Below, in pieces: positions 1,527-64,000 of a stretch of 64,000 nucleotides of DNA (position 1 is the stretch's first letter; every line of letters starts with the position of its first letter). Both the position numbers and the translations under genes were made by a program. This DNA is from Gautieria morchelliformis (Eukaryota; Basidiomycota; Agaricomycetes; Gomphales; Gomphaceae): the NCBI GenBank assembly GCA_015179125.1, contig WHVA01000078.1, positions 1 through 64,000 on the forward strand, read 5' to 3'. The notes beneath the pieces were generated by a model. It was not told the DNA's origin. It worked only from the letters and a program-made list of their open reading frames with translations, and ran no database searches.

Positions 1527-2795
1527 TGTCATGACGCGTTTATTTCCCATACTCAGAAGCTCAGTTCTCCTATTTTCTCACCCCACCTTCGTGTTCGTTC
1601 CGATCACCATTGTCATGTTCGGCAACCAACTCCCGCTGTTCGCGCCAACTACCATAGCCGCGCCGTCAAACGCACGATCGACGTCTTGGACTGACTCGGC
1701 AGTCATCACTGGGCCTGCCACCTCTGCTTGACCCTCTTCCGATGGTGTTCTAATAGTTGGGTTGTCATGACCTGTGTATCTCCTGCACCTTGGTATCCCC
1801 ATTTTCCCTTTTGCTACTCCTCCTCAGTGTTCGCCCGGCTTCGACCTCGACCTCTCCCTCTCCTCCCCTATGTCACTTCTGTTTGCCCTTCCTTGCATTT
1901 CGCCGAACGGCTATTCGCCGCTCGCATCATTCGCCAGCAGGCACACCATCAGAAACGATCGATACCATTCACCCGGCATGATGGTTCATCATTAACCCCA
2001 TCGTCTTCTTAAATCCAACCCATTGGGCGTTCGTATGGTCAAAGTATGTTCGCAGGACATCCCTTCCATAGGTCATGCGGAATCAAGCCAGTAGACCAAG
2101 AGTCCGTGCAGGGTAGCATGTATGCGGGCCCCAAGACATGGTTTTGTCCATAAGTGCCTTCGCCACCTTTATTCTCCATCGTTTCATGTTCGCATTCTTC
2201 CCTCACTCTATTGTATGTTTATTCCATCTACTTGGTATCATGACTGCGCACCCCTATCCAACCCTGACTCATGACAACCTCTTTCCTATTCGCGGATACC
2301 TTGCGAGCATTCAATATAAGTAGTTTACATTCGCATGTATATTCTCCAGTTCAATTATCATACATCGTCCATCTTGTGCAAACTTGACCTCACTGTGATC
2401 ATTGTCTTGAGCCTTCTCTTGGAGATTTCTATCTTCAACCAGCAGAGGACTTAGGCATCACTGGTGGGTTCTCATACTTCATCTTCGTTACCTTAGCCTT
2501 CGAACTATTTTCTGCACTGTTGGTGAAGGGCTCCGAAGGAGCACCTTCACCGGCAAAGGGATTGTTGCTACTTAGACAGCCCTTCCGTGACACCTTGCAC
2601 GTTGTATCATCAAGTGCCACGGGCCATTTCGCTACGACTGTAGATAGGGCGAGCCCCGTTCGGGCAACCCTCTTACCTTGTGAACATTCATTGGTTCACC
2701 TATTCGCCGAACGGCATACTTATTCGCACAAGTTATTCGGGCATTCGCTGTGTTCACTAATACACGATATTAACGCCTAAAAACCAATCTTGACA
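1527..2795 (+). repeat. 5' LTR of E1, long form with duplicated head
   Basis: It begins TGTCATGACGCG and ends CTTGACA. A second head (TGTCATGACCTG) starts at 1763. The same two-headed layout appears in the solo LTR at 10922-13272, which has a perfect target duplication outside the outer head. The long form is therefore a real LTR variant of about 1.27 kb, not two chance insertions. Confidence 0.8.
2315..2358 (+). promoter_or_regulatory. LTR core promoter and inferred transcript start
   Basis: A TATA-like box (TATAAG, 2315-2320) lies 33 bases upstream of AGTTCAATTAT (2348-2358). The same spacing recurs in the 3' LTR (second motif at 8860-8870) and in the solo LTR (11748-11758). The downstream motif is the complement of the primer-binding site, which marks it as the likely 5' end of the transcript in a self-priming element. 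The start site is inferred, not measured. Confidence 0.6.
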
Positions 2796-8276: not shown

Positions 8277-9308
8277 TGTCATGACCGGTTTATTTCTCCT
8301 ACCGCGTTACCTCCATGTTCCCCCTCGTCACTCCCTAGCATCTTCGTCAGAGTTCGCCGCACCTACCGACCACTCCTCCTCTACATCCACTCTACTCGTT
8401 GTTCGCCCCATCCTCCGAACCGCTATTCGCTGCTCGCGCATTTCGCCAGCAGGCACACCATCAAATATGATCGATACCATTCACCCGGCATGATGGTTCA
8501 TCATTAGCCCCATCATCTTCTTAATCCAACCCCATTGGGTGTTTGTATGGCCAAAGTGCGTTCGCAGGGCGTTCCTTCCATAGGTCATGCGGGATCAACC
8601 CAGTAAACGAAGAGTCCGTGCAGGGTAGCATGTATGCGGGTCCCAAGACATAGTTTTGTCCATAAGTGCCTTCGCCCCCTTTTACTCTCCGTCGTTCCAC
8701 GTTCACATTCTTCCCTCACTCTATTGTATGTTTATTCCATCTCCTTAGTATCATGACTGCACACCCCGATCCGCCCTAACTCACGATGGCCTCTTTCCTA
8801 TTCGCTAATACCTTGCGAGCATTCGATATAAGTAGTTTACATTCGCATGTATATTCCCCAGTTCAATTATCATACGTCGTCCATCTTGTGCAAACTTGAC
8901 CTCACTGTGATCATCATCTTGAGCCTCTCCTTGAAGATTTCTATCTTCAACCAGCCAAGGACTTAGGCATCACTGGTGAGTTCTCATACTTCATCTTCGT
9001 TACCTTAGCCTTCAAACTATTTTCTGTGCTGTTGGCGAAGGGCTCTGAAGGAGCACCTTCGCCAGCAAAGGGACTGTCGAAACTTAGACAGCCCTTCCGT
9101 GATATCTTGCACGTTACGTCGTCAAGTGCTGCGAGCTATTTCGCTACGACTGTAGATAGGGTGAGCCCCAGTTAGGCAAACCCTCTTATCTTGTGAACAT
9201 TCATTGGTTCACCTATTCGCCTAACGGCATACTTATTCGCACAAGTTATTCGGGCATTTGCTGTGTTCACTAATACACGATATTAACGCCTAAAACCCAA
9301 TCTTGACA
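8277..9308 (+). repeat. 3' LTR of E1
   Basis: It starts TGTCATGACCGG directly after a purine-rich tract and ends CTTGACA at 9308. It has a single head, a TATA-like box near 8827 and the AGTTCAATTAT motif at 8860-8870. Its 5' 200 bases diverge from the 5' LTR more than the rest does. Confidence 0.85.
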
Positions 9309-44834: not shown

Positions 44835-45250
44835 CAGACGCCGGCTGTTGTAAAGTACAACCGGTTGTAAACTACATGTACAACCTGTTGTAAACTACAC
44901 GCGTATTCTAATCAGACACACATGCCTGCGCCTCCACATACGGATCACCTGAACCGTCCCTCGTCGCTCGACGGTGCACAGGCACCGTACGCCGCGGCTC
45001 GCCTCATGGTGCACAAGAACCGTACGTCGCCGCTAGCCTCACGGTGCACAGGCACTGTCCGTCGCCTGCCAGTACGGTGCACAAGAACCGTACGCCGCCG
45101 CTCGCCTCAGGGTGCACCGGAACCGTCCGTCGCATCTCCGCTCACAGTGCACATGCACCGCCGTACGCAACGTCCACTTACGGTGCACAGGCGCCGTCCG
45201 TCGCCTCTCGGCTCACGGTGCACATGTACCGACCGCCGACCCCGCCGCGC
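44835..45250 (+). repeat. Minisatellite-bearing repeat element, copy A
   Basis: The head of about 130 bases starts CAGACGCCGGCTGTTG and contains two 23-base repeats built on TACAACC(G/T)GTTGTAAAC (palindrome ACAACCGGTTGT). It is followed by eight tandem units starting at 44971, 45006, 45041, 45074, 45109, 45144, 45180 and 45215 (period 33-36), each centred on ACGGTGCAC plus an inverted ACCGT. A second copy in inverted orientation is at 57060-57594. Open frames across it are by-products of the repeat. Nature unknown. Confidence 0.8.
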
Positions 45251-46035: not shown

Positions 46036-46800
46036 TCATGGTGCACGGTGGTCACCATAGAACCATATGGAATCAGCCAAGTAGGTGAGCAATGTTGCTA
46101 ATTCATGAATCAATGAAATGCCAGTGCTGGCCCTCTGTTCCTTGCCAGCAGACAAGCAAGTTGATACCGACTCACTTGGAGTCTCCGAATCAAGCGCGGA
46201 TGCATGATTGCTCGCTCGCGATTCTACAGCCGATATCGATAGACCCAGATCAAAGGGAGTCGGTAGTGTGTTAGGGTTGAGGCGCGTACTATCAGCTATA
46301 CGTTGTTTCTTGGCACATGGGGGAGTTGCTGTAGCACTTGTGCCCGATTCCAGATTGGACTCCTTACGATTCGTTCCACGCTGGGCTCCGGCAGCGAAAG
46401 GCATGTCCACTTCAGCCTCTTTGCCAGGCCAGCTCGCGTTGTCAGTTCTCGATGGCTCCTGGTTCTGCGGCAACGACATACCTTCAGCCACGATCATCTG
46501 TTTAACCTTCTCAAAATCTTCAAGAAGCTTTGCCTCGCCCTCCGGAATAAGGAGGTCGTGGTTCCAGCCCTCAATAGGAGGTTTTATGTTTGCGCTCTGT
46601 TGCTCATGAAAGGCTGCGAACGTGCCCTTCACACTGATGCCGTAGAGTTTCGGCAGGATGCATAGTGTCTGAAGTTCTTTCATGGTTTCACGCATATGAA
46701 TGTCATGCAGCGTATCCTTCAACTTCAAGTCGTCTGGGGTATCATGAGCCTTGACGTCGAGATAAAGAACAGGTTACAGCTCGACGACAAATGTTGCGAA
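46036..46800 (-). CDS. Hypothetical protein, probably 3' part of a longer gene
   Basis: A minus-strand open frame of 230 codons starts at 46728 and ends at 46036. The same frame can be entered from upstream (VKAHDTPDDLKLKDTLHD), so the ATG at 46728 may be internal and an earlier exon may exist around 46750-46870. The first 80 residues look well ordered (MKELQTLCILPKLYGISVKG), followed by a Ser/Thr/Pro-rich tail with a basic patch (CAKKQRI). I do not recognise the family with confidence. The order of features slightly recalls proteins near fungal FunK1-type kinases. Confidence 0.45.
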
Positions 46801-50213: not shown

Positions 50214-52364
50214 CTAGAAGGCAATACCCGGGCCCCTCAGCCCTTCCAAGTCATGCTTGTTGATGTCTTTCCTAGACTTTGTCCAGGGAGCCACAGATAG
50301 ATTTGGATGTCTACCTTCCTCAGGATCTGGGTTTCGCATTCCAGTCTCTTTGATGGAGTTAGGCATCAAATCCTTGATGGTAACGCTCGAGTTGCCCGAG
50401 CTCGACGACGAGATGGCCGGAACTGATGAAGCCGAAGATTCATGCGGGATGGCCGTGGAGGTGGACGAAGAAGAATTGGCAAACCCACTCCTATAGATAG
50501 AATACAACGAAATAGACGAGAACGTGGGCGAGGGCGCCACAAAGCCTTGGGGGGAGAGACCCGCTCGTCGTGCATGTGCTGATCCATCAGGCATGTACAG
50601 TCCCCTAGCTTCGTCACCAGCTTCTGTCTCTGCATACTCGCTCACCGAATCGAGGGCTGGCGGGGCAGCCTCGATCACTATCACAGGGCCAACTCCCTGT
50701 GTCGGTTCGTTTGGAAGTTCCGATCTGGCCACAGGGGAGGCTAGGTAAGGCAATACAGGTGTCTGCTCTGGTCTGGGATTCAGAAGGTATGACGACATGG
50801 GGATCGGTGCTGGTGATCGGTTCTTGGTGGGGAAAGCACCGGGAGAAGCAATGCCATCATATACAGATACAGCAATCGAGACACGCCTGTCAGAATGAGG
50901 ACCGTGCTGGGGATCATTTCGACCGAAGTGTTTGTGATTCCATGTCCCAGTACGTGCGTGGTTAGCCATATCTGGAGAAAGCAGCCCAAGTGAGTCGGGT
51001 GCCAGTGGTCGACAGCGCACATGTGCCGGTAGAGGGTCTTTCACGGCCTCCCACCGTTTCTTGGGCTGCCCTCCCTGCAGGTAACTTTGAACTCGAGAAG
51101 TAGAGTTTTGACTGGGTATTGCTACTGGGTGCGAGATCGCGAACCCTGACTGGCCGTAATCATAATCTCCCCGTGTGGCGGTTGGCAGAGCCGGGAGATT
51201 TATCAGTTGTGGCGGTAGGGTACGCGGAAGGTGAGGGGATACACGACTGGGAGCAGTGACCAAACCCGCGCATACAGGAGGAGGTGTGCCAAAAGGGTTG
51301 TCGAAGTTCTATCGAGCCAGGGAGTTCAAAAAGGGAGGCGAGTCTCGCAGGATCTCACTTACCGCCTTCTCTAGCTCCCCATCCAAACTAGTTTCTGCTC
51401 CACTAATATAGCGTATCATGGGTGTTGCTGAATTGGCACTTGCAACTCTATGTGCTCCAATGCCTGCCAGTCCAGCAGTACTATGGATGCATGACACATA
51501 TGCGGGCTTGTCGATATTTCCACCATCTCCGTCCTTGCTTGGAATTACGCGACTAGCGCGACCAGCGCTGACTCGAGAAAACGATGAAAGTCCCGCTCCT
51601 TTCCTCTCTTTACTGTTGAACACGAGATCGCCCCTATCAGATGGTACTTCATTCATCCCAGGCCTCCGCGCAAGGCGTATCCTGCGCCGTCGACTTATGA
51701 TGAAGAATCCCAGAATTGCGAGGACGGGTACACCAGCCAGCACGCCAATAATGGCGAAGCGTATCTTCGAGGCGGAGTTGGTGCTAGTTCCAGCGGCGGG
51801 TGGGGACGACACGCTGGGCTGCCCAATAATAGAGTTAATAGATTCAGCGACCGGTGAGGATGACTGAGTATTATGTTGTTGAGAGGATAAGCTTGCAGTG
51901 TGAAGCCCCGTGCTTGAGGAAAGACGTGTTGCAAATGGTACTGGAAAATCGGGTGTGGAACTATATTTGGGGTTCGTTAATGTTGATGCGATTGCATGTG
52001 TCACTGTCTGGTAATTGGCCACCTGGGTCGTGACAGACGCGGCAAGTGCGAGAGCCCGGTCACTGACAGCTAAAAAGGAGACAGTTATGCAGTATATTGG
52101 AGCACAGACGGGTGGGTACCTTTGGGGGATGGGTGTATTGTGTGATAATCAGGTGCCACAGGCGCCATGGATGGTACTGGTGATGGCGACACACTAAACG
52201 GAAGTGGTCCAGCTTCATCGGGCCTATCTGTACCCCAATGGGTTGGTAAAACAAAAAAACTCCATTTATTTCAACTGACCATTCGACACATATCTCAGCG
52301 TCGGGGTTCCTGCTACAACGCGAAGAAAAAGAACGGGTACAACAAGGAACATGTTGTGATGCAT
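50214..52364 (-). CDS. Secreted or single-pass type I membrane protein, Ser/Thr-rich
   Basis: Four inferred exons (52280-52364, 52120-52227, 51363-52069, 50214-51308) splice to exactly 665 codons. Residues 1-20 form a signal peptide (MHHNMFLVVPVLFL). An ectodomain of about 145 residues is rich in Ser/Thr/Pro, so likely O-glycosylated, with one VANYQTVTHAI helix-like part. A membrane segment at about 168-189 (IIGVLAGVPVLAILGFFII) is followed by SRRRRIR, the positive-inside signal. The long cytosolic tail is disordered and Ser-rich. The layout recalls fungal mucin-like sensors, but no cysteine-rich WSC domain is present, so the role is unknown. The gene is divergent from permease 2. Confidence 0.75.
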
Positions 52365-57059: not shown

Positions 57060-57594
57060 TGGGGGGTGCCAGTTCACTGTACTGAGGGGCGCGATACGCA
57101 CGGTACTGAGAGGCGGGATACGGTGCACGTGCGCATTATGGAGGGGCAGCCTATGGTGCAGGTCCACCGTACTGAAGGGCGCGATACGGTGCTGAGAGGC
57201 GGCGTAGTGACGGTGCACGTGCACCATACCGAGAGGCGGCGTACGGTGTAGGTGCACCATACTGAGAAGCGGGGTACGGTGCACCTGCACCGTATGGAGG
57301 GGCGGCCTATGGTGCAGGTTCACCGTACTGAGGGGCCGGATACGGTGCGGAGAGGCGGCGTACAGTGCACGTGCACCGTACTGAGAAGCGGGATACGGCG
57401 CGGGTGCACCGTATGCCATAGAGGCGTAAGGACGGTCGGCGGTCACCGTATGTAGATGCGAGGAGACGGTTCAGGTGAACAGGATGTGGAGGCGTAGGAA
57501 TGGGCGTCTGAATTACACATGTATTTTGCAGCAGGTTGCACATGTAATTTACAACAGGTTGTAGTATAGTACTGTTTCCAACAGCCGGCGTCTG
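57060..57594 (-). repeat. Minisatellite-bearing repeat element, copy B (inverted)
   Basis: On the minus strand it reproduces copy A (44835-45250): the head beginning CAGACGCCGGCTGTTG ends here at 57594, followed by the TACAACCTGTTGTAAA repeats, the GCCTCCACAT and TCACCTGAACCGTC blocks, then about ten tandem units. Unit starts on the plus strand are 57120, 57153, 57186, 57210, 57243, 57276, 57309, 57342, 57362 and 57395, mostly period 33. The core ACGGTGCACGTGCACCGT is a perfect palindrome. The head end lies only 134 bases upstream of the NLR-type gene's start codon. Confidence 0.8.
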
Positions 57595-57728
57595 CTGCCT
57601 GCCCACCTTTGGTGTAGAGGCGCTCGCAGTGCCTGTCAAGTCTTCTTTTCCACGTTCTCACCGCAGTTCAACTGCCTTGCACTAGCACTGCCTCCTTCGT
57701 CCCCCATACCACGACCTCTAACTCCTCC

Positions 57729-60700
57729 ATGGACCATATTGAGCAAATCGCCAAAGCTTCCACTTCATCCAGGCATGACGAAACGCTGCCTATCGTAGAA
57801 CCGTCTTTGTTACCCTCGAAGGTAAGCAAGCTTTATTCCAGGAGGCTAAACAATCAATGGGACTGACTTTCTGACGGATCTTCATGAATAGGTCGTATCG
57901 CTGTCTGATTCTGGTCTTGCTGCAAGGAGGACGGGCATCGAATCTACCCCCACGACGCAAACCGATGAGCATAGAGGTGTCGGGCTCAGGTTGCTTTCAC
58001 TCGGTAATCATTTCGTGCTTCTTATATGACACCTTCTGACTCCCTCAGCAGATGGCGGCGGCATCCGTGGCTTGTCCGAACTCATCATCCTGCAAGCAAT
58101 CATGAAAAGAATTCAGCACGAAGAAGGGCGACCCACAACCCCCCTTCCTTGCGAATATTTCGACTTAATCTGCGGCACGAGTACAGGCGGGTAAGTTACT
58201 TTCTTCTCGATCGCAGTCGCTCTCTAATACGTTTCACGCAGGCTCATAGCGCTCATGCTGGGCCGCCTCCGCCTGCCCGTAGATAAAGCGATCGAAGCCT
58301 ATGGCACATTCGCCTCACAAGTGTTCTCGGATAAGAAACCGTTTTGGAAGGACGGAATGTTCAAGGCGAGTAATTTAGAGAAAGCTATCAAGGCAATCAT
58401 CCAGGATTCGACTGGTGACCCTGACGCACGCATGCTCGATCCAAGACCAAGCAGAGAAGTGTGCAAAACGTATGGTCACGTTGCCGCTCGTTCTTGACTT
58501 GGTACATCGCTGACTGGAGCCCAGTTTCGTCTGCGCAATGCCCGCAAATAATATGAGTGCACCCCGCCTCTTTCGTACATACAGTGTAGGCAAGTACGAC
58601 TCATTCGACTGCGCTATATGGGAGGCCGCTCGCGCTACGTCTGCCGCTCCTACCTTTTTCAAACGGATTTTCATCGGCATATCACCTATGCGTGAACCCT
58701 TCGTCGATGGCGGCCTGGGTTGCAACAATCCTATCAAGCAAATCTTCAATGAAGCAGAACATATATCTCCACACCAGCACATTGCTTGTGTCATCAGTAT
58801 CGGCACTGGACATGTCACCACTGCCAGCCTGCCGGCACCTAGTCTGTTTAACAATGTCATACCATTAAGTGTAGCTGAGGCATTGAAGAAGATCAGCATG
58901 GAATGTGAGGCAACAGCAGAGGAAACCGAGCGGCGCTTCAGATCTGCACCAAATGTTTACTTTCGGTTCAATGTGGAGCAAGGATTGCAGAGTGTAATGT
59001 TGGCACAGTGGGAAAGGTTACCTGAGGTGATGACACACACATTGCAGCATCTTCAGCAGGGAAAAGTAGATGAGATGGTAATGGCTGCTGTCATTGCTCT
59101 CAGGGAGCGCCGGGAAGTGATAGCTGCCACACACCTCAGTGTGTACAACTTGCAATGCCTCACAGCTGATGACATATGTTTTATGGTAGACACTGTAGAT
59201 CCAGGCACTATTGGCAAGCCGTCAGGTAAACATGGAGCTTGCCGTAAGGCTTGTCCTCCACCAACAAGCGGATTTACTGGAAGAATAGATATCCTTTTGC
59301 AACTTGAGGGATATTTCTTCCCAGAGCACATATCCACTGTTAAGGAGGAACAGCGCATATTTCTCTTGTATGGGCTTGGTGGGGCTGGAAAAACACAGAT
59401 TGCATTGACATTTGTTGACAAGTTTTATCAACGGTGGGTATTTTACCCAGGTCTGTTATGTGTGGACTAACTGTGTTATGTTTAGTTTTTGGAGAGTCTA
59501 TTATGTTGATGCAAGTAGTATGACCACTTTGGAGTCTGGCCTTGAAGACATTGCTCGGGAAGAGGGTATTGGTGAGACTGCCAAAGATGCTCTTCTCTGG
59601 CTTTCTGGACAACACCAAGCATGGTTGCTTTTCATGGACAATGCTGATGACTGCGACGTAAACCTTCAAAAGTACTTCCCACTGTGCAAGCATGGAAATA
59701 TCATTGTGACAAGTCGCAATGTGGAGTGTTGCATGCATGCACCCAGCTCCAACTGCCATGTGTCAAGTATGAATGCTGAGGAAGCTATTCATTTGCTCCT
59801 TGTGTTTTCTAGAGTCAAAGATTCTGTGAAGAATCTTAGCTTGGCATCTCTGATCGTGAAAGAACTTGGTTACCTTGCCCTGGCCATTGTACAAGCTGGT
59901 GCCTATATCTCAAATGGATGCAGGTTAAATGACTACCTGAAGATTTTCCAGAAGGATCGGGCTCAACTAATGAGCAAGCACTCAGTACAAATGGTAGACA
60001 ATTATCCATGGGCAGTATATGCAACATGGGAAATTAGCTTTAAAAGGCTAAGTCCCATAGCAGCAACCCTGTTACATCTGTGTGCATTTCTACATTATAG
60101 GGGGATTTCCCAAAGCATCTTTCAAAAAGCTTCTCTCATGGATCTTGATGGACCATTTGATGATGCAAAACAATTTCTACATAACTTCCAAACTACAGAT
60201 GGCGGCTGGAGTGACTTTCAATTTCAGGAGATCATTAATGAGTTAGCTTCATACTCATTAATTAGTACCAATGAAGAAGATAGCACATTTTGCCTGCATC
60301 CACTAGTACATGCCTGGGCTCGAGATAACCTAGAGGTGGCAGAGCAGGAGAATAACCAAGGATGCACAATGAAGATACTAGCACATTCTATCTCATATGG
60401 AGATAGTACAGAGGATTATGCTTTTAGAAGATCTCTTCTGTCTCATATTAATGAGCTACATACAAAATGTGTAGATTTAAACATGGTACAAAAATTTGCA
60501 AAAGTGTTCCATGAAGCAGGGCGATGGAAGGATGCTGAAGAACTGCAGGTTAAGGGTGTGGAAGCAAGTAAGAGTATCCTGGGTGAGGAGCATCCTGGCA
60601 CCCTGGCTGCCATGAGAAACCTTGCCTCAACCTATCGGAATTTGGGCCGGTGGAAGGATGCTGAAGAGCTGGCAGTTCAAGCCTTGGAGATAGGAAAGAG

Positions 60701-62990
60701 GGTCTTTGGTGAGGAGCATCCTGACACCCTGACAGCCATGGGAAACCTTGCCTTAACCTATCGGAAGTTAGGCCAGTCGAAGGATGCTGAAGAGCTGCAG
60801 GTTCAAGTCCTGGAGGCAAGGAAGAGTGTCCTTGGTGAGGAGCATCCTGACACTATGAGAGCCATGGGAAACCTTGCCTTAACCTATTGGAATTTGGGCC
60901 AGTGGAAGGATGCTGAAGAGCTGGAGGTTCAAGCCTTGGAGATAGGAAAGAGGGTCTTTGGTGAGGAGCATCCTGACACCCTGATAGCCATGGGAAACCT
61001 TGCCTCAACCTATCAGAATTTGGGCCAGTGGAAGGATGCTGAAGAGCTGCAGCTTCAAGTCCTGGAGGCAAGGAAGAGTGTCCTTGGTGAGGAGCATCCT
61101 GACACTATGAGCGCCATGGGAAACCTTGCCTTAACCTATCAGAATTTGGGCCAGTGGAAGGATGCTGAAGAGCTGCAGGTTCAAGTCCTGGAGGCAAGGA
61201 AGAGTGTCCTTGGTGAGGAGCATCCTGACACTATGAGAGCCATGGGAAACCTTGCCTTAACCTATTGGAATTTGGGCCAGTGGAAGGATGCTGAAGAGCT
61301 GGAGGTTCAAGCCTTGGAGATAGGAAAGAGGGTCTTTGGTGAGGAGCATCATGACACCCTGATAGCCATGGGAAACCTTGCCTCAACCTATCGGAATTTG
61401 GGCCAGTGGAAGGATGCTGAAGAGCTGCAGGTTCAAGTCCTGGAGGCAAGGAAGAGTGTCCTTGGTGAGGAGCATCCTGACACTATGAGCGCCATGGGAA
61501 ACCTTGCCTTAACCTATCAGAATTTGGGCCAGTGGAAGGATGCTGAAGAGCTGCAGGTTCAACTCCTGGAGGCAAGGAAGAGTGTCCTTGGTGAGGAGCA
61601 TCCTGACACTATGAGAGCCATGGGAAACCTTGCCTCAACCTATCAGAGTTTAGGCCAGTGGAAGGATGCCGAAGAGCTGGAGATTCAAGTCCTGGAGGCA
61701 AGGAAGAGTGTCCTTGGTGAGGATCATCCTGACACTATGAGCACCATGGGAAACCTTGCCTTAACCTATTGGAATTTGGGCCAGTGGAAGGATGCTGAAG
61801 AGCTGCAGGTTCAAGTCCTAGAGGCAAGGAAGAGGATCCTTGGTAAGGAGTATCCTGACACCCTGATGGCCATGGGCAACCTTGCCTCAACCTATCGGAG
61901 TCTGGGCCAGTGGAAGGATGCTGAAAAGCTAGAGGTTCAAGCCTTGGAGATAGGAAAGAGGGTCTTTGGTGAGGAGCATCCTGACACCCTGATATCCATG
62001 GGAAACCTTGCCTTAACCTATCGAAGTATGGGCCAGTGGAAGGATGCTAAAGAGCTGGAGGTTCAAGTCCTGCAGGCAGGAAAGAGGGTCCTTGGTGAGG
62101 AGCATCCTAACACCCTGGTGGCCATGGGAAACCTTGCCTTAACCTATTGGTGTCTGGGCCAGTGGAAAGATACTGAAGAGCTGCAGGTTCAAGTCCTGGA
62201 GATAGGGAAGAGGGTGCTTGGTGAGGAGCATCCTGGCACCCTGATAGCCTTGGGCAACCTTGCCTTAACCTATTGGAGTCTGGGCCAGTGGAAGGATGCT
62301 AAAGAGCTGCAGGATCAAGTCCTGGAGGCAAGGAAGAGGATCCTTGGTAAGGAGCATCCTGACACCCTGAGAGCCATGGGAAACCTTGCCTCAATCTATC
62401 GGAATTTGGGCCAGTGGAAGGATGCTAAAGAGCTGGAGGTTCAAGTTCTGCAGGCAAGGAAGAGGGTCCTTGGTGAGGAGCATCCTGACAGTCTGACAGC
62501 CAGGGGCAACCTTGCCTTAACCTATCGGATTCTGGGCCAGTGGAGGGATGCTGAAGAGCTACAGGTTCAAGCCCTAGAGATAGGGAATAGGGTCCTTGGT
62601 GAGGAGCATCCTGGCACCCTGACGGCCATGGGCGACCTTGCAACAACCTATCGGAGTCTGGGCCAGTGGAAGGATGCTAAAGAGATGGAGGTTCAACTCC
62701 TGGAGGCAAGGAAGAGGGTCCTTGGTGAGGAGCATCCTGACACCCTGATCACCATGGGTAACCTTGCCGAAACCTATTGGAATTTGGGCCAGTGGAAGGA
62801 TGCTGAAGAGCTTCAGGTTCAAGTCCTGGAGGCAAGGAAGAGGGTCCTTGGCAAGGAGCATCCTCATACCCTGAGGGCTATGGCAATCCTTGGCTCAACC
62901 TATTTGGGCCTGGGCCAGTGGAAGGATGCTGAAGAGCTGTACATTCAAGTCATGGAGGCAAGGAAGAGGTCCTTGGTAAGGAGCTGTTAG
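57729..62990 (+). CDS. Fungal NLR-type protein: patatin-like phospholipase, NB-ARC, TPR array
   Basis: Six inferred exons (57729-57821, 57892-58003, 58052-58190, 58242-58469, 58525-59433, 59486-62990) splice to 1661 residues. The patatin domain has the oxyanion motif DGGGIRG at about 69-75, the nucleophile Ser112 in GTSTGG and the dyad Asp252 in DGG. NB-ARC has a P-loop GLGGAGKT at about 474-481, the Asp-rich WLLFMDNADD at about 540-549, then NIIVTSRN and GYLALAIVQAGAY. From about residue 840, nineteen full 42-residue TPR units of kinesin-light-chain type run to the end. The architecture is that of fungal NLRs such as Neurospora PLP-1, which trigger cell death in nonself recognition. A similar role is inferred. 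The last unit ends early: one G is missing against its neighbours in AAGAGGTCC (about 62967), shifting into a stop at 62988. Confidence 0.9.
60520..62975 (+). repeat. 126-bp tandem TPR-coding array
   Basis: Nineteen complete 126-base units and a partial twentieth encode G(Q)WKDAEEL...VLGEEHPDTL. Units are nearly identical in DNA as well as protein. A higher-order period of 378 bases (three units) is visible: the block from about 60895 recurs from about 61273 with few differences. This indicates recent unit duplication or gene conversion. Confidence 0.9.
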
Positions 62991-63090
62991 TGGTTGGGTG
63001 GAGGATCAGAGCTTGAGGCTCAGTCTGAACTGGAGTAGTATTGATGCCATGTATGCAGTGCTAGTTTTACAGAGCTCCTACCATGTCTAT

Positions 63091-64000
63091 TGTCAAGGTT
63101 GGTTTTTAGGTGTTAATATCATGTATTAGTGAACACAGCGAATGCCCGAATAACTTGTGCAAAGAGATATGCCGTTCGGTGAATAGAGTGAACCAATAAA
63201 TGTTCAGAAGATAAGAGGGCTACCCAATCGGGGTTCGCCCTATCTACAGTCGTAGCGAAATAGCCCATGGCACTTGACGATGTAATGTGCAAGGTGTCAC
63301 GGAAGGGTTGTTTAAGTAGCAACAATCCTTTCACCGGTGAAGGCGCTCCTTCGGAGCCCTTCGCTGACAGCGCAGATGACAGTTTGAAAGCTAGGGTAAC
63401 GAAGATGAAGTACGAAAACTCACCAGTGATGCCTAAGCCTTCCTCTGGTCGAAGATAGAAATCTACAGGAGAGGGCTCAAGATGATAGTCACAGTGAGGT
63501 CAAGGTTTGCCCAAGATAGACATATGATAATTGAACTGGGGAATATACATGCGAATGTAGACTACTTATATCAAATGCCCGTATGGTATCAGCGAATAGG
63601 AAAGAGGCCGTCATGAGTCAGGGTTGGATAGGGGTGTGCAGTCATGATACAAATAGATGAAATAAACATACAATAGAATGAAAGAGGAGTGTGAACATGA
63701 AACGACAGAGAGGAAAGAGCGAAGGCACCTATGTACGAAAACACGCCTTGGGACCTGCATATATGCCACCCTGCACAGACTCTTCTTCTGCTGGGTTGAT
63801 CCCACACGACCTACGGTAGGATGTCCCGCGAATGCATCCTGGCCATATGAACACCTAAAGGGGTTGGATCGAGAATATGATGGGGCCAGTGATGAACCAT
63901 CACGCCGGGTAAAGGGTGTCGATCGTGTTTGATGGCGTGCCTGCTGGCGAATGATGCGAGGAGCGAATGGTCGTTCGGCGAATGTGGCGAAGAGCGAATG
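63091..64000 (-). repeat. LTR-B copy on the minus strand, cut by the window end
   Basis: It starts TGTCAAGGTTGG on the plus strand, the reverse of the family tail, and continues with the TTAGTGAACACAGCGAATG block, the ATAATTGAACT complement near 63528 and the TATA region near 63565. The head is not yet reached at 64000. Whether it is a solo LTR or part of an element cannot be told from this window. Confidence 0.85.

What the first reader, a model, noticed from the sequence alone, without database searches (positions are those of the whole stretch)
57729..62990. Patatin/NB-ARC/TPR NLR with a nearly homogenised TPR array
The P-loop, patatin dyad and about 19 almost identical 42-residue TPRs are all visible. 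High internal identity in the recognition repeats is a known hallmark of fungal NLRs under diversifying unit shuffling. The 378-bp higher-order period (three units) points to very recent block duplication. This is a strong candidate for a nonself-recognition locus.
Basis: partly seen in the sequence, partly recalled or inferred. Interest (0 to 1): 0.75.

Follow-up and report, generated by a model that had tools for sequence, protein, structure and literature searches.

The report
Fungal immune receptor with repeat array
This is an intact fungal immune-type receptor gene (lipase, switch and repeat sensor), one of dozens of close copies in this genome, whose sensor repeats vary mostly at positions expected to touch a ligand; the kind of gene is already known.

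Summary
The observation largely holds. Window 57729-62990 (+) is one intact six-exon gene of 1661 codons: patatin lipase, NB-ARC/DUF7779 switch, and 18 full 42-residue TPR units with a divergent first and a shortened last unit. "Almost identical" is too strong: units average 87% DNA and 76% protein identity. The 378-bp signal is one tandem duplication of three units. The gene is a fungal NLR of the patatin/NB-ARC/TPR type (as Neurospora PLP-1); diversifying TPR arrays in fungal NLRs are already described (Dyrka 2014). Less ordinary: 39 other near-copies (82-89% DNA identity) were scored in the same genome. Patatin and NB regions are under purifying selection (dN/dS 0.20, 0.32). Amino-acid change among units is concentrated at the TPR positions that an earlier study names as ligand-facing (pN/pS 1.67 in this gene, 1.26 in the family; elsewhere 0.58, 0.54); tree counting confirmed only one of the four most variable. 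Units resemble units of the same gene, arrays change faster than the rest, and no recent exchange between genes was seen in the partly read arrays. No SNARE match lies on this contig. A role in nonself-triggered cell death is likely by analogy but untested. New member of a known kind.

The parts
57729..57821 (+). exon 1 (start ATG)
57892..58003 (+). exon 2
58052..58190 (+). exon 3, patatin DGGGIRG and GTSTGG (acceptor giving 58049 also possible)
58242..58469 (+). exon 4, patatin
58525..59433 (+). exon 5, patatin VDGG (catalytic Asp), linker, P-loop GLGGAGKT
59486..62990 (+). exon 6, rest of NB-ARC (WLLFMDNADD), DUF7779 (LHPLVHAWA), TPR array, stop
60474..60599 (+). first, divergent TPR unit; resembles first units of other copies (0.881) more than its own array (0.667)
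60600..62867 (+). 18 full 42-residue TPR units (126 bp each)
62868..62990 (+). C-terminal shortened unit and stop; end resembles L021, L025 and L026 by eye
60779..61635 (+). three-unit (378 bp) tandem duplication, 4 mismatches over 479 bp
63088..63990 (.). neighbour, not part of the gene: high-copy repeat; related copies at 1903-2795 and 8415-9308 lie either side of a Gypsy-like reading frame (by eye), so probably an LTR

Best explanation
The gene encodes a fungal NLR with a patatin phospholipase effector, an NB-ARC switch and a TPR sensor. Shown: architecture, intact motifs, purifying selection on effector and switch, amino-acid change concentrated at ligand-face positions of the repeats, homogenisation of repeats within genes, and fast array change. 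Inferred: the TPR superhelix binds a ligand on its concave face, binding lets NB-ARC exchange nucleotide and oligomerise, and the clustered patatin domains hydrolyse membrane lipid and kill or damage the hyphal cell. New sensor specificities arise by unequal crossing-over between units, such as the 378-bp duplication. The dozens of copies would act as a repertoire of sensors for nonself or for disturbed self proteins; allorecognition is only one possible use.
For: Gene model and domains. GTSTG, the catalytic Asp and a GxGxxGKT P-loop in 30 of 30 copies read (window plus 29), DGGGIRG in 27 of 30. dN/dS 0.20 patatin and 0.32 NB over 153 pairs of the 18 copies intact by my test. Entropy over 314 stop-free units of 331 is highest at unit positions 3, 13, 10, 14; with my register these are TPR positions 2, 12, 9, 13, among the seven that Magliery and Regan 2005 give as most variable and concave (passages read). 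For their seven positions taken beforehand, pN/pS is 1.67 in the window (elsewhere 0.58) and 1.26 over the genes (elsewhere 0.54); random sets of seven positions reach that pN in 2 and 1 of 20000 draws. Nearest unit in the same gene for 57% of 302 units, shuffled mean 3.4%. For 11 gene pairs with N-terminal identity of 93% or more, N-terminal part 0.947, same-index units 0.869. PLP-1 has the same architecture and its killing depends on the patatin domain and the NB-ARC ATP-binding motif (review PMC12881547, passages). Nearest solved patatins by sequence are CBASS CapV phospholipases, 1.4e-14.
Against: No expression, allele or phenotype data. Tree-based counting gives a significant excess only at positions 10 (p 2e-10) and 26 (3e-5, not in the ligand-face set); positions 3, 13 and 14 come out near 1, and recombination disturbs such trees. 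In the window array positions 31 and 28, outside that set, vary as strongly as 13 and 14, and ligand-face position 5 (unit 6) is G in 17 of 18 window units. NB-ARC is just below Pfam's cut-off. No SNARE match on the contig. The AlphaFold model of the array is poor (mean pLDDT 52), so the concave mapping rests on register, not on a model. 12 of 30 copies fail my intactness test in the first part, so part of the family may be decaying.
Confidence: 0.7

Rival explanations
1. The array is made and homogenised by neutral unequal crossing-over and gene conversion; variation at ligand-face positions is relaxed constraint, not selection for recognition.
For: Tree counting gives ratios near 1 at positions 3, 13 and 14; window positions 31 and 28, not ligand-facing, vary as much; arrays turn over fast in general; 12 of 30 copies fail the intactness test.
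Against: Within-gene pN/pS at the seven positions taken beforehand is 1.67 (window) and 1.26 (genes), against 0.58 and 0.54 elsewhere; position 10 is significant on the tree; patatin and NB are constrained.
Confidence: 0.25
2. The receptor serves symbiosis, development or defence against bacteria, viruses or fungal parasites rather than allorecognition.
For: [quoted passage not shown] another reports NLR genes responding during symbiosis in some fungi (PMC10197012, passages). A large family fits a broad sensor repertoire.
Against: The characterised gene of this architecture, PLP-1, controls allorecognition.
Confidence: 0.5
3. Array length and the 378-bp duplication are assembly artefacts of near-identical repeats.
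For: Short-read assemblies of such NLR repeats are unreliable (PMC12222747, abstract); the sequencing method here is unknown.
Against: The duplicated blocks differ at 4 sites, units are 80-99% alike so most can be told apart, and the frame is open throughout.
Confidence: 0.08

Closest known systems
[not shown]
   Same: patatin, NB-ARC and TPR, as described in PMC12881547 (passages)
   Different: sequence not compared here; no SNARE match on this contig; dozens of close paralogs here
Podospora anserina TPR NLRs with highly conserved repeats (Dyrka 2014, PMC4986451, section 17 read)
   Same: internally similar TPR units, variable unit number, variable sites on the concave face
   Different: the TPR gene analysed for selection there has a sesB-like effector and allelic data; here paralogs and units are compared, not alleles
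HNWD family (HET-D, HET-E, HET-R; PMC2873952 abstract and headings)
   Same: multi-copy NLR family with repeats evolving together; a heading there says repeat rearrangements are intragenic
   Different: HET effector (recalled) and WD40 repeats; recombination between family members is reported there, not seen here (0 of 435 pairs at my threshold)
PDB 4y6c and 4y6w (TPR-like repeats, named after P. anserina); kinesin light chain TPRs
   Same: sequence match of the repeat domain: 4y6c 6e-29, best kinesin light chain 3.2e-38; that 4y6c has 42-residue units is recalled, its alignment was not viewed
   Different: repeat domain only; NLR context of the Podospora protein not looked up
CapV, CBASS cGAMP-activated phospholipase
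   Same: patatin effector of an immune system, best solved sequence match 1.4e-14
   Different: named as activated by cGAMP; the match covers the patatin part only

Membership tests
fungal patatin/NB-ARC/TPR NLR | N-terminal patatin with Ser-Asp dyad | tested here: met
   Pfam 1.9e-25; GTSTG and VDGG
fungal patatin/NB-ARC/TPR NLR | NB-ARC domain with P-loop | tested here: met
   P-loop, WLLFMDNADD and LHPLVHAWA present. Pfam 22.9 bits against 23.5, so just below for this copy, and this copy is not among the 34 NB-ARC matches; all those 34 are over the cut-off and include close copies on C915 and C1037
fungal patatin/NB-ARC/TPR NLR | C-terminal TPR array | tested here: met
   19 stretches, 8.5e-255
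NLR with highly conserved repeats (over 85% identity over 100 aa or more, Dyrka 2014) | internal repeat identity over 85% at protein level | tested here: not met
   mean 75.8% protein, 87.4% DNA over 18 units; the duplicated block is near-identical; their program T-reks was not run
diversifying recognition repeats | excess amino-acid change at ligand-face positions | tested here: inconclusive
   pN/pS 1.67 and 1.26 at seven positions taken beforehand; tree counting significant only at position 10 of the four most variable
diversifying recognition repeats | repeat number polymorphism between strains | not testable with these tools
   one assembly only. Between paralogs with the array end in hand, units detected are 20 (window), 11, 7, 15 and 8 (L010, L012, L013, L014); L013 and L014 have a stop inside repeat-like sequence, and L011 and L015 are out of register
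PLP-1/SEC-9 system | linked polymorphic SEC-9 SNARE | tested here: inconclusive
   SNARE family: 3 matches of 16 candidates, none on C870; a six-frame search can miss spliced genes
heterokaryon incompatibility gene | controls death on fusion of unlike strains | not tested
   needs genetics

The most novel reading that the evidence does not exclude
One fungus keeps a repertoire of several dozen close patatin NLRs that differ mainly in independently shuffled TPR sensors. Effector and switch are held fixed while each gene re-invents its own sensor by unequal crossing-over inside the gene, with little or no exchange between genes. This would be a germline-encoded repertoire generator of unusual size for this NLR class.
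Probability: 0.35. Interest if true: 0.55.

Novelty: new member of a known kind. Interest (0 to 1): 0.35.

Why it matters
Patatin NLRs were reported at a mean of 1.7 per species that has them (Dyrka 2014, passages), though from annotation that reached only 13% of basidiomycete sequences. A genome with dozens of close copies gives a within-genome series for measuring how fast repeat sensors change while effector and switch stay constrained, and for asking what selects them.

Tried and rejected
Mobile-element carriage of the gene: the longest matches of 28 of 29 copies to the window begin at 57607-57741, close to the ATG (L023 at 57933). By eye, several copies share more upstream sequence with each other (whose output was cut), which fits ordinary duplication and decay; not tested further. 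The high-copy repeat at 63088 is a separate element, probably an LTR.

Frameshifted last unit: noted early as damage, then dropped because L021, L025 and L026 end in a similar way (ELSKRSW, EARKRSIHPP, EARKRSIHP, 16 distinct loci printed; others end differently).

NB-ARC replacing NACHT in this genome: suggested by 0 NACHT matches at 1e-8, rejected because 32 pass 0.001 and NPHP3_N gives 154 (a lower bound).

Exchange of units between genes: 0 of 435 pairs with a unit of 97% or more and an N-terminal part under 93%; most arrays were read in part only, so exchange is not excluded.

Selection test on positions 3, 10, 13, 14: these were picked after seeing the entropy, so its ratios (2.28 window, 1.56 all) are biased upward; one search repeats it with the published seven positions.

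Prokaryotic relatives of the NB region: 27 pattern matches, none confirmed (single-sequence query, so close relatives only). The AlphaFold model of the array was too poor for a fold search, which I did not run. Ten reading frames between 40919 and 63997 gave no Pfam match above cut-off (best zf-4CXXC_R1, E 0.034); frames before 40 kb were listed but not scanned.
Full report
Setting. The window is G000:C870:1-64000 of an unnamed 122-Mb assembly in 1113 contigs. It carries reading frames that look like Gypsy-type pol by eye, the NLR gene has short introns, and the genome holds fungal-type kinases (PF17667, 16 matches at 1e-20 or better, 107 of 377 candidates scored), so I take it to be a filamentous fungus. 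A basidiomycete is my guess; no call names the organism.

The gene. ATG at 57729, five introns of 45-70 bp with GT-AG ends, stop ending at 62990, 1661 codons (exon 3 begins at 58049 or 58052). Pfam finds patatin (1.9e-25), NB-ARC (5.9e-05, 22.9 bits against a cut-off of 23.5) and DUF7779 (1.9e-08) in the first 823 residues, then TPR_10 in 19 stretches. One search gave 40 matches, the window itself and 39 others; 29 of those 39 were held as loci and the ten lowest-ranked were not read. In the 30 copies read, GTSTG, the Asp of [VI]D[GA]G and GxGxxGKT are present in 30, DGGGIRG in 27. The kinase-2-like and MHD-like strings were found by pattern in a part of the copies only.

The array. 18 full units at 60600-62867, a divergent unit before and a shortened one after. 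Mean pairwise identity of the 18 is 87.4% DNA and 75.8% protein. Units 3-5 and 6-8 (counted from 60600) match at 98.4-99.2%; the block runs 60779-61257 against 61157-61635 with 4 mismatches in 479 bp. Against the family's mean dS of 0.34 and intron distance of 0.19 this is recent in relative terms. The tail resembles the ends of L021, L025 and L026.

The family. Only 40 of 124 candidates were scored, so 39 other copies at 82-89% identity is a lower bound; two of them (L032, L033) are identical and might be an assembly palindrome. Patatin gives 129 matches, which I clustered into 90 loci, 60 of them with an NB-ARC match or a close copy within 4 kb; some of the other 30 may be housekeeping lipases. 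NB-ARC gives 34 matches. NACHT-type switches are abundant too: 32 by NACHT, 154 by NPHP3_N with 150 of 585 candidates scored. Large NLR repertoires and strain-specific expansions are known in fungi, up to 602 genes in Fibularhizoctonia (PMC10197012, passages). Dyrka 2014 (PMC4986451; abstract, section 17 and passages) gives patatin NLRs a mean of 1.7 per species having them, but its N-terminal annotation reached only 13% in basidiomycetes, so the contrast is indicative.

Constraint. 18 of 30 copies are free of stops and frame breaks from ATG to the array by my alignment. The 18 include both L032 and L033, whose first intron lacks a normal donor in that alignment, and L020, whose first intron ends in AT there; L023 fails partly because its 5' end does not match. 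dN/dS over 153 pairs: patatin 0.20, linker 0.30, NB with DUF7779 0.32.

Repeat variation. In 314 stop-free units out of 331 (17 with stops dropped; 12 of the 314 are L033's duplicates of L032), entropy is highest at positions 3 (3.18 bits), 13, 10 and 14. With the invariant TPR residues as register (my alignment), these are TPR positions 2, 12, 9 and 13; Magliery and Regan (PMC1261162, passages) name 2, 5, 9, 12, 13, 33 and 34 as most variable and exposed on the concave face. For these seven taken beforehand, without L033, within-gene pN/pS is 1.67 in the window and 1.26 over the genes, against 0.58 and 0.54 elsewhere, and random sets of seven reach that pN in 2 and 1 of 20000 draws. For the four positions picked afterwards the ratios are 2.28 and 1.56, biased upward. 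Against this: counting on a tree of 298 distinct units is significant after correction for 42 positions only at 10 (p 2e-10) and 26 (3e-5), with 3, 13 and 14 near 1; in the window, positions 31 and 28 vary as strongly though not in the published set; and unit position 6 (TPR 5) is nearly fixed in the window. Selection is suggested, not proved.

Concerted evolution. Without L033, 57% of 302 units have their nearest relative in the same gene (shuffles: mean 3.4%, maximum 8.4%); for the window 82%; genes range from 0 (L012, L025, L026) to 92%. The window's first unit is instead closest to first units of other genes. Among 11 gene pairs with N-terminal identity of 93% or more (406 pairs in all), the N-terminal part is 0.947 identical, same-index units 0.869 and best-matching units 0.904, so arrays change faster than the rest. 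Unit-1 values there are disturbed by index shifts in some loci. No pair of 435 shows a unit of 97% or more with an N-terminal part under 93%; most arrays were read only in part, so exchange is not excluded.

Mechanism. By analogy with PLP-1 as described in PMC12881547 (passages; the primary paper was not read): ligand binding, NB-ARC oligomerisation, patatin-dependent cell death. The nearest solved patatins by sequence are bacterial CBASS CapV chains. The nearest solved repeats are kinesin light chains and the Podospora-named TPR-like chains 4y6c and 4y6w. The low-confidence AlphaFold model shows helix pairs (mean pLDDT 52).

Partner. SNARE family: three matches, none on C870. Ten neighbouring reading frames gave no Pfam match above cut-off.

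Print. The listings of searches in the open library showed no paper whose title or abstract start reports a patatin NLR expansion of this kind. Eight papers were opened, in abstract, passages or single sections only (PMC4986451, PMC1261162, PMC12881547, PMC12258605, PMC9815663, PMC2873952, PMC12222747, PMC10197012); most subscription journals are not held.

Verdict. A real, intact fungal NLR of known architecture, in a large family, with repeat behaviour already known for this class.

Noticed in passing
window 1903-2795, 8415-9308, 63088-63990: About 0.9-kb repeat: two copies in direct orientation, 90% alike, either side of a Gypsy-like reading frame, and a further one in reverse orientation about 100 bp after the NLR stop; 4326 first-look candidates in the genome, 40 scored.
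   Followed up: partly
window 44971-45231 and 57075-57410: Two related minisatellite stretches in opposite orientation, the second just upstream of the NLR gene.
   Followed up: partly
L032 and L033 (G000 C670, 604031-606790 - and 585430-588189 +): Two identical NLR copies in opposite orientation about 16 kb apart: a recent inverted duplication or an assembly palindrome.
   Followed up: no
genome G000: 154 NPHP3_N (NACHT-type) matches with 150 of 585 first-look candidates scored: a very large NLR repertoire overall.
   Followed up: no
window 46036-46773 (-), 50214-51308 (-), 51309-52148 (-): Open reading frames without a Pfam match; 51309-52148 looks by eye as if it holds a membrane-spanning stretch.
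   Followed up: no
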